Source: an uncultured Myxococcales bacterium
GTDB lineage: Bacteria > Myxococcota_A > UBA9042
NCBI GenBank assembly: GCA_903840165.1
Contig: CAIMEY010000065.1
Coordinates: forward strand, 24,375-88,374
Length of the DNA stretch: 64,000 nt
Direction: 5' to 3'
Shown here: piece by piece, positions 38,754 to 40,163 of the stretch
Layout of the letters: each line of letters starts with the position of its first letter
Numbering within the stretch: position 1 is the stretch's first letter
Notes under the pieces: model-generated
Told to the model about the DNA's origin: nothing
Seen by the model: the letters and a program-made list of their open reading frames with translations, nothing else
Database searches by the model: none
Made by a program: the position numbers and the translations under genes

Positions 38754-40163
38754 ATGCGCACACGTCAGAAGCTTTCGATCTTGCTGCTCCTGCTGATTTG
38801 CACTGCAGGCGGTGCGACTTATTGGGCGCGGCACTTGCCAACGACCGGCGCAGGAGCGACCGCGTCGCCCCCAGCCGCTCAGCCGCGCGACGTGCCGCAT
38901 TTGGCGAGTTCTGGCGTGGTCGAGGCCGCGGAGATTCACGCCCAACTCCTTGCCGCTGCTCAGAATATGCCCGAGCCGACCTTGGCTTCTGTGACCAATC
39001 ACGCCTCGGCCCCCAGCCAAGCGCCCGTGCCGATGCCCGAAGCGCCTTTGCCGCCCGTGCCGGAGAATCAGCAACTCGCGATCGGCTTTAGCAGCAATGT
39101 GGTGGGTGAAGTTGACCCTTGCGGTTGAGCACATCACCCGCTGGGCGGTCTGGCTCGGCGAATGCAGTGGTGGCTAGGCAGGAACAAGGCGCGACCGCAT
39201 ACGTTGCTGCTTGAGGCCGGCAATTTGTTCATTTCCAGCGCGCAGATGCCGACCGAACGACCCGGTGAAGGCGTGGCCCGCGCCGAAGTCTTCCTGCAGG
39301 TCATGCACAAGATGGGCTATGCCGCGATAAACGTGGGCATTGGCGAACTGGCCTTGGGTCTAGAGCCCCTGCAGCGCCTAGCCAAGCAGTACAAAATGCC
39401 CTTGTTGTCTGCGAACTTACTCCATCAGGGCAAGCCGGTGTTTGCGCCAACCTGGGTCAAGGACTATGGCCTGGTCAAGGTGGGCGTCTTTGGCCTGATC
39501 ACCTCGACGCCGCCTGAGCTCGGGAAGTGGGTTGCAAATCAAGGACTTAATATTGCTGATCCGGTAGGTTCGGCCAAGCAAGCAGTGGCGGAGTTAAGGC
39601 AGCAGCATTGCGAGCTCATCGTCTTGCTGAGTCAGCTGTCGCGGCAGGAAGCCCAGGTGGTGGCCGATCAAGTGCCTGAGATTACGCTGATTCTTGGGTC
39701 GACGGGCATGGAGGCGTCGACGCAGCTTACGGCCATGGGCCACGGCTTCTTTGCCGATGCGTTTACCAAGGGCAAGTACATGGGGGAGATCCTGGTCTCG
39801 GTTCGCGGCGACAAAACTCAGTTTTACGCTGCAAATCTACGGAGTTCCTTGGCCGCTGAGCGGGCGGACTTGGCCAGTCAGGTCCAAGGGCTGCAAAGTC
39901 AGTTGGAGACGGCGAACAAGCCTGGTGGGCCTTTGCAGCTCACGCCGGAGACCCGGCAGCAAATGGAACGACAACTTGCTGGCGTTCGCGCGCATTTACA
40001 GCGAGTTTCCATGGAGTTAGAGGGTAATATTGAGACGCCCACCTCTGCCAGTACGGTCGAGTTGACCATGGGCTCGCTGGACAATGAGATCGTCGATGAC
40101 GCCTGGGCGGACGCGAAGGTTAAGAAATTGCAAGAGAAGTTCCCCAAGCAGAACGGGCACTAA
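38754..40163 (+). CDS. Candidate selenoprotein: metallophosphatase/5'-nucleotidase-like protein with in-frame UGA (Sec) in a PCG-U-x4-LGGLARR motif
   Basis: ATG 38754 (MRTRQKLSILLLLLICTAGG...) reads in one frame through TGA 39126-39128 to the stop at 40163: ...QQLAIGFSSNVVGEVDPCG[TGA]AHHPLGGLARRMQWWLGRNKARPHTLLLEAGNLF.... The ORF track shows 38550..39128 and 39162..40163; the 33 nt between them are in frame and encode AHHPLGGLARR. Confidence 0.8.
39126..39160 (+). promoter_or_regulatory. Candidate bacterial SECIS element (UGA plus downstream stem-loop)
   Basis: UGA, 10 nt (GCACAUCACC), stem CGCUGGGC (39139-39146), loop GGUCUG (39147-39152), stem GCUCGGCG (39153-39160): 8 pairs, 6 Watson-Crick and 2 G-U. 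The loop starts 18 nt after UGA and contains GGUCU. Confidence 0.72.

What the first reader, a model, noticed from the sequence alone, without database searches (positions are those of the whole stretch)
38754..40163. Undescribed candidate selenoprotein: Sec replaces a conserved Cys (PCGC to PCGU) in a metallophosphatase/5'-nucleotidase-like protein
Seen in sequence: ORFs 38550-39128 and 39162-40163 are in the same frame. The only interruption is one TGA at 39126-39128, and the 11 codons between the TGA and the second ORF's ATG read AHHPLGGLARR. The joined protein reads ...IGFSSNVVGEVDPCG-TGA-AHHPLGGLARRMQWW...LLEAGNLF...MGYAAINVGIGELALG.... From knowledge of the family: metallophosphatase/5'-nucleotidase-like proteins of deltaproteobacteria often carry an N-terminal 'EPCGC-x4-LGGLARR' motif. 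The TGA sits at the second Cys of that motif, the classic Cys/Sec exchange. TGA is a normal stop elsewhere in this window (e.g. the genes ending at 11314, 17618, 20607, 26086), so global recoding is unlikely. Automated callers would report a truncated N-terminal orphan plus a 'MQWWLGRNK...' protein, losing the motif. Inference: a selenoprotein family or subfamily I do not recognise as described.
Basis: partly seen in the sequence, partly recalled or inferred. Interest (0 to 1): 0.93.

Follow-up and report, generated by a model that had tools for sequence, protein, structure and literature searches.

The report
Selenocysteine-containing inactive-phosphatase-like protein of Myxococcota
An apparently broken gene in an uncultured myxobacterium-like bacterium is an intact gene whose internal TGA codes for selenocysteine; it belongs to a selenoprotein family known since 2008 but sits on a separate branch that has no haem-binding tail, and automatic annotation cuts it in half.

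Summary
One in-frame TGA (39126-39128) separates PCG from the conserved PLGGLARR, and the joined ORF 38754-40163 is continuous. It is very probably a true selenoprotein. The host genome has selA, selB, selD and tRNA-Sec. Eighteen genomes of its family, this one included, carry TGA at this codon; two carry TGT or TGC. A stem-loop with loop GGUCU begins its loop 18 nt after the UGA. The loop codons GGC-GGT-CTN occur in 43/43 Sec copies against 1/16 Cys copies, and the stem covaries.

"Undescribed" is wrong. UshA-like (COG0737) CxU selenoproteins were reported in 2008 and have an NCBIfam model, NF041198. This protein scores 190 bits against a cut-off of 275: it covers only the UshA-like part and lacks the tetrahaem c-type tail. 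The haem-less copies sampled form one clade (97/90), sister to haem-tailed Sec copies; all those on the tree come from one class of Myxococcota.

Metallophosphatase ligands are mostly replaced, so 5'-nucleotidase activity is unlikely. My reading, which is inference, is an exported selenol/thiol redox protein on a dead phosphatase fold. Neighbours (glutamate-cysteine ligase, putative glycosyltransferase, KCE/KAL) recur in several relatives but show no operon. New variant of a known family; moderate interest.

The parts
38754..40163 (+). Full selenoprotein gene: 469 residues with Sec at residue 125, stop TAA
   Evidence: 18 same-family genomes (own included) have the same reading with TGA at this codon
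38769..38825 (+). N-terminal hydrophobic stretch (signal peptide or membrane anchor) KLSILLLLLICTAGGATYW
   Evidence: Read from the translation; some relatives show lipobox-like N-termini, e.g. L051, L049, L050. Export itself is inference
39117..39128 (+). PCGU (CxU) motif; Cys codon 39120-39122, Sec codon TGA 39126-39128
   Evidence: Cys (TGT/TGC) at the same codon in L029 and L031
39139..39160 (+). bSECIS stem-loop: 8-bp stem CGCUGGGC/GCUCGGCG with loop GGUCUG beginning 18 nt after the UGA
   Evidence: Single-sequence fold, consensus fold, covariation, loop codons fixed in 43/43 Sec copies
39072..39830 (+). UshA/5'-nucleotidase N-terminal-domain-like fold with most metallophosphatase ligands replaced
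   Evidence: AlphaFold2 model pLDDT 89.7, pTM 0.89; Foldseek hits to UshA, CD73, 5'-nucleotidases; profile hits; ligand table
39837..40022 (+). Two long helices after the domain; no CxxCH haem motif follows
   Evidence: Model secondary structure; CxxCH count 0
35358..36734 (-). Neighbour: GCS2-family glutamate-cysteine ligase, recurring near this gene in relatives
36913..38490 (-). Neighbour, divergent: putative membrane glycosyltransferase (weak match to NF047440, LA_3751/LA_3752 family), recurring in relatives
40239..41066 (-). Neighbour, convergent: BKACE / 3-keto-5-aminohexanoate cleavage enzyme-like
41073..41465 (-). Neighbour: 3-aminobutyryl-CoA ammonia lyase (NF052388, over its cut-off)

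Best explanation
The gene encodes a genuine selenoprotein, a haem-less branch of the UshA-like PCGU/PCGC family. The in-frame UGA is decoded as selenocysteine by SelB and tRNA-Sec, with the stem-loop 18 nt downstream acting as bSECIS (strongly supported by sequence, not shown by experiment). The protein is probably exported by its N-terminal hydrophobic stretch (inferred). It keeps the 5'-nucleotidase fold but has replaced most metallophosphatase ligands, so it is probably not a phosphoesterase. The conserved C-G-U motif, in a lower-confidence loop after the first strand of the model, is most likely the working site, as a selenol/thiol redox pair (a CxU selenenylsulfide); this is inferred, partly because sister proteins carry a tetrahaem c-type tail. 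Confidence: selenoprotein about 0.97, branch placement about 0.9, loss of phosphatase activity about 0.75, redox role about 0.5. The overall figure is for selenoprotein plus placement.
For: Host has tRNA-Sec at 74.6 bits over a cut-off of 47 (ARAGORN tRNA-SeC, anticodon tca), selB 282 bits over 242, selA 461.9 over 268 and selD 364.7 over 125. All 21 same-family relatives have selA and 20 of 21 have tRNA-Sec. TGA at this codon in 18 family genomes, Cys in two. SECIS: 95.8% of cells paired, 3 pairs with changes on both sides, covariation 0.218 against 0.102 shuffled and at most 0.070 slid; loop codons GGC-GGT-CTN in 43/43 Sec copies, 1/16 Cys copies. NF041198 190 bits, positions 20-378 of 519. 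Haem-less copies are one clade, 97/90. Fold by AlphaFold2 and Foldseek. Ligand positions mostly lost. Sister clade has 4 CxxCH.
Against: No read data and no protein evidence. Sequences are mostly from MAGs. Single-sequence folding energy of the SECIS is not unusual in itself (z -0.58), and covariation tests are inflated by relatedness. The redox role rests on the CxU motif and the haem-tailed relatives; no assay exists. Conserved neighbours are convergent or divergent, not clearly one operon. Ligand positions come from a sequence alignment, and some (e.g. the H of GNHE in 14 of 25 haem-less Sec copies) are kept.
Confidence: 0.9

Rival explanations
1. Pseudogene or sequencing error: the TGA is a disabling stop or a base-call error.
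For: Automatic annotation reports a truncated ORF; assembly is fragmented and no reads are available here.
Against: The same TGA is at the same codon in 18 family genomes and in further families of the class, the reading frame is intact on both sides at 37-53% protein identity, the SECIS loop is fixed in 43/43 Sec copies, and Sec machinery is present.
Confidence: 0.01
2. The protein is a working metal-dependent phosphoesterase/nucleotidase in which Sec or Cys tunes or ligates a metal.
For: Fold and profile match 5'-nucleotidases, cyclic phosphodiesterases and SoxB; some distant members keep D of GD and H of SH.
Against: DxH is lost in all 29 haem-less copies; GD, GNHE and GHDH positions are mostly replaced; neither the metallophosphatase (PF00149) nor the C-terminal 5'-nucleotidase (PF02872) Pfam model matches.
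Confidence: 0.2
3. The CxU motif binds a metal or haem iron (a delivery or sensing protein) and is not a redox pair.
For: Relatives carry tetrahaem tails; CxC/CxU motifs can bind soft metals (general knowledge).
Against: No test was possible; Sec sits mostly in redox sites in known selenoproteins (PMC2398784, PMC9312934).
Confidence: 0.25
4. TGA is read as an ordinary amino acid (global recoding) or suppressed at low level.
For: None beyond the in-frame TGA.
Against: TGA is a normal stop in the window and in orthologues of this gene; Cys at the site and the SECIS point to Sec.
Confidence: 0.005

Closest known systems
UshA-like selenoprotein, COG0737 CxU / NCBIfam NF041198 UshA_like_PCGU
   Same: PCGU motif, GGLARR after it, UshA-like domain and following helices (profile positions 20-378)
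   Different: 190 bits against a cut-off of 275; lacks profile positions 379-519, where relatives have 3-4 CxxCH motifs; the haem-less copies are their own clade
UshA-like selenoprotein family 2, NCBIfam NF049981 (CxxU)
   Same: Short UshA-like domain (262-position model) with Sec at a related site
   Different: 49 bits against a cut-off of 140; motif is CxU here, CxxU in family 2 (PMC13188914; CPTU seen in L106-L108)
UshA / CD73 / 5'-nucleotidase and SoxB
   Same: Fold of the N-terminal metallophosphatase domain
   Different: Most metal ligands replaced, no C-terminal substrate domain match

Membership tests
Bacterial selenoprotein | In-frame UGA with Cys at that codon in homologues | tested here: met
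   TGA in 18 family genomes, TGT in L029, TGC in L031
Bacterial selenoprotein | Host encodes SelA, SelB, SelD and tRNA-Sec | tested here: met
Bacterial selenoprotein | bSECIS stem-loop just downstream of the UGA | tested here: met
Bacterial selenoprotein | Selenium in the protein | not testable with these tools
   Needs 75Se labelling or mass spectrometry
NF041198 UshA_like_PCGU | PCGU/PCGC motif with UshA-like domain | tested here: met
NF041198 UshA_like_PCGU | Curated score cut-off of 275 bits over the full model | tested here: not met
   190 bits; but many haem-tailed Sec copies also fall below, e.g. 273 bits
NF041198 UshA_like_PCGU | C-terminal multihaem c-type region (profile about 379-519) | tested here: not met
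   Match ends at 378; no CxxCH
NF049981 UshA-like selenoprotein family 2 | Score cut-off 140 bits and CxxU motif | tested here: not met
   49 bits; CxU
Metallophosphatase / 5'-nucleotidase | Metal ligands DxH, GD, GNHE, SH, GHxH | tested here: not met
   Mostly replaced in an alignment with the canonical relative P0033
Metallophosphatase / 5'-nucleotidase | Fold of the catalytic domain | tested here: met

The most novel reading that the evidence does not exclude
The PCGU UshA-like proteins are former metallophosphatases that lost the metal site and became exported selenol-based redox proteins, one branch wired to a fused tetrahaem cytochrome and this branch working without it, with a separate partner. 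That would be a redox selenoprotein scaffold with no thioredoxin-like fold.
Probability: 0.4. Interest if true: 0.62.

Novelty: new variant of a known kind. Interest (0 to 1): 0.4.

Why it matters
UshA-like selenoproteins have been listed since 2008 with no function named in the passages I read. The loss of most phosphatase ligands across the sampled family, and a clean split between haem-tailed and haem-less branches, turn an annotated 'nucleotidase' into a testable candidate for a selenium-dependent redox protein. The branch falls below the curated model's cut-off and is truncated by gene callers, so the selenoproteomes of its host genomes are likely under-counted. The Sec-to-Cys change in two relatives that keep the Sec machinery gives natural controls.

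Tried and rejected
Single-protein scan of genome contigs found nothing, because the chosen peptides were not conserved; the same scan with a family alignment worked. Alignment A1 was too diverse for that scan. Paper searches for 'PCGU' and for selenoprotein plus metallophosphatase gave nothing. Rfam over the gene gave no relevant match. I first took metagenome protein P0022 as a sign that haem-less CxU forms occur elsewhere; its DNA shows CPTU, i.e. CxxU, so it is family-2-like and was dropped as evidence. Pseudogene, sequencing error and global recoding were rejected (see rivals). I considered that loss of the Sec machinery explains the Cys orthologues; rejected, since G013 and G016 both keep selA and tRNA-Sec.

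Full report
Observation. The joined protein from ATG 38754 has 469 residues.

Host machinery. The window lies in a 5.7-Mb, 123-contig genome, 93% complete. It has tRNA-Sec, selB, selA and selD, each best match above its cut-off. The related records that carry names are mostly uncultured Myxococcales or Deltaproteobacteria MAGs; several isolate names point to lakes, and one is from groundwater.

Recurrence. Relatives were searched with the joined protein (145 genomes); in the same family the orthologue nearly always has exactly one internal TGA. Reading the DNA, 18 family genomes (own included) have TGA at this codon, L029 has TGT and L031 has TGC. L045 (DCGC) is a more distant Cys copy. The tree places L029 and L031 together inside the Sec copies, so this looks like one Sec-to-Cys change; both genomes retain selA and tRNA-Sec.

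SECIS. The stem CGCUGGGC/GCUCGGCG with loop GGUCUG lies at 39139-39160; its loop starts 18 nt after the UGA (position computed). On 24 distinct Sec sequences 95.8% of cells pair. Three pairs show changes on both sides, the covariation score is 0.218 against 0.102 for shuffles, and sliding the partners by 1 to 3 columns drops it to 0.070 or less. The single-sequence energy is not exceptional (z -0.58), so the case rests on comparison. The strongest item is conservation at synonymous sites: the two Gly codons and the Leu codon read GGC-GGT-CTN in 43/43 Sec copies and 1/16 Cys copies; among the five Cys copies that also read Gly-Gly-Leu, one of five keeps it. Some haem-tailed Sec copies fold a weaker or differently spaced stem.

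Known family. NCBIfam matches the protein to NF041198 'UshA-like (seleno)protein' at 190 bits, cut-off 275. The 2008 GOS paper lists 'COG0737, UshA-like' with motif CxU (PMC2398784); PMC9312934 and PMC13188914 repeat it, the latter with NF041198 and a second family NF049981, CxxU. The claim of an undescribed family is therefore not supported.

What differs. The match stops at profile position 378 of 519. The missing part is where family members carry CxxCH motifs; haem-tailed copies have 3 or 4, all haem-less ones 0. In a tree of 60 UshA-like domains the haem-less copies form one side of a branch with support 97/90, in 96% of 200 bootstrap trees, next to haem-tailed Sec copies. All haem-less copies in that tree come from the window's class; one further match without the tail, G247 of another family in the phylum, appears by profile coordinates only and was not placed. 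The own genome also holds a haem-tailed Cys paralogue (L010). NF041198's cut-off also leaves out many haem-tailed Sec proteins, so a sub-threshold score alone does not mark the branch.

Fold and function. AlphaFold2 gives pLDDT 89.7 and pTM 0.89, with the PCGU loop less certain at 64-70. Foldseek's best matches are mostly 5'-nucleotidases such as UshA and CD73, TM-score normalised by the query about 0.5-0.65. In an alignment with a canonical relative (P0033), DxH is absent from all 29 haem-less copies and the other ligands are mostly replaced; the same is largely true of the haem-tailed copies. I infer a dead phosphatase fold with a working CxU site. That it is redox-active is inference from the motif and the haem-tailed sisters.

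Surroundings. A GCS2 glutamate-cysteine ligase, a putative membrane glycosyltransferase, and KCE/KAL homologues recur beside the gene in several relatives. The gene is divergent from the glycosyltransferase and convergent with KCE, so co-transcription is not implied. The link to thiol synthesis is suggestive only.

Annotation. The closest database entry is the 333-residue piece after the TGA; most other close hits are pieces of 296-335 residues, while three Cys-containing relatives are full length at 472-476.

Verdict. Very probably a genuine selenoprotein, in a known family, on a haem-less branch for which I found no description in the sources searched. I cannot exclude that the 2008 set included haem-less CxU sequences.

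Noticed in passing
L010 (G000:C64:45372-46799, minus strand): Own genome carries a second, haem-tailed UshA-like protein with PCGC and 4 CxxCH motifs.
   Followed up: partly
L052: A class relative has EPSGU: the partner Cys of the CxU motif reads Ser while the TGA and the SECIS loop codons are kept.
   Followed up: no
L106-L108: Metagenome genes with CPTU (CxxU); L106 scores 225.6 bits on NF041198 and 113.5 on NF049981, below both cut-offs; their loop codons are not GGCGGTCTN.
   Followed up: partly
window 40239-41465: Pair of lysine-fermentation-type genes (KCE-like and KAL) recurs next to the selenoprotein in several relatives.
   Followed up: partly
G008:C68:6545-6637 and G008:C7:4466-4558: One family genome has two tRNA-Sec genes over the cut-off.
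   Followed up: no
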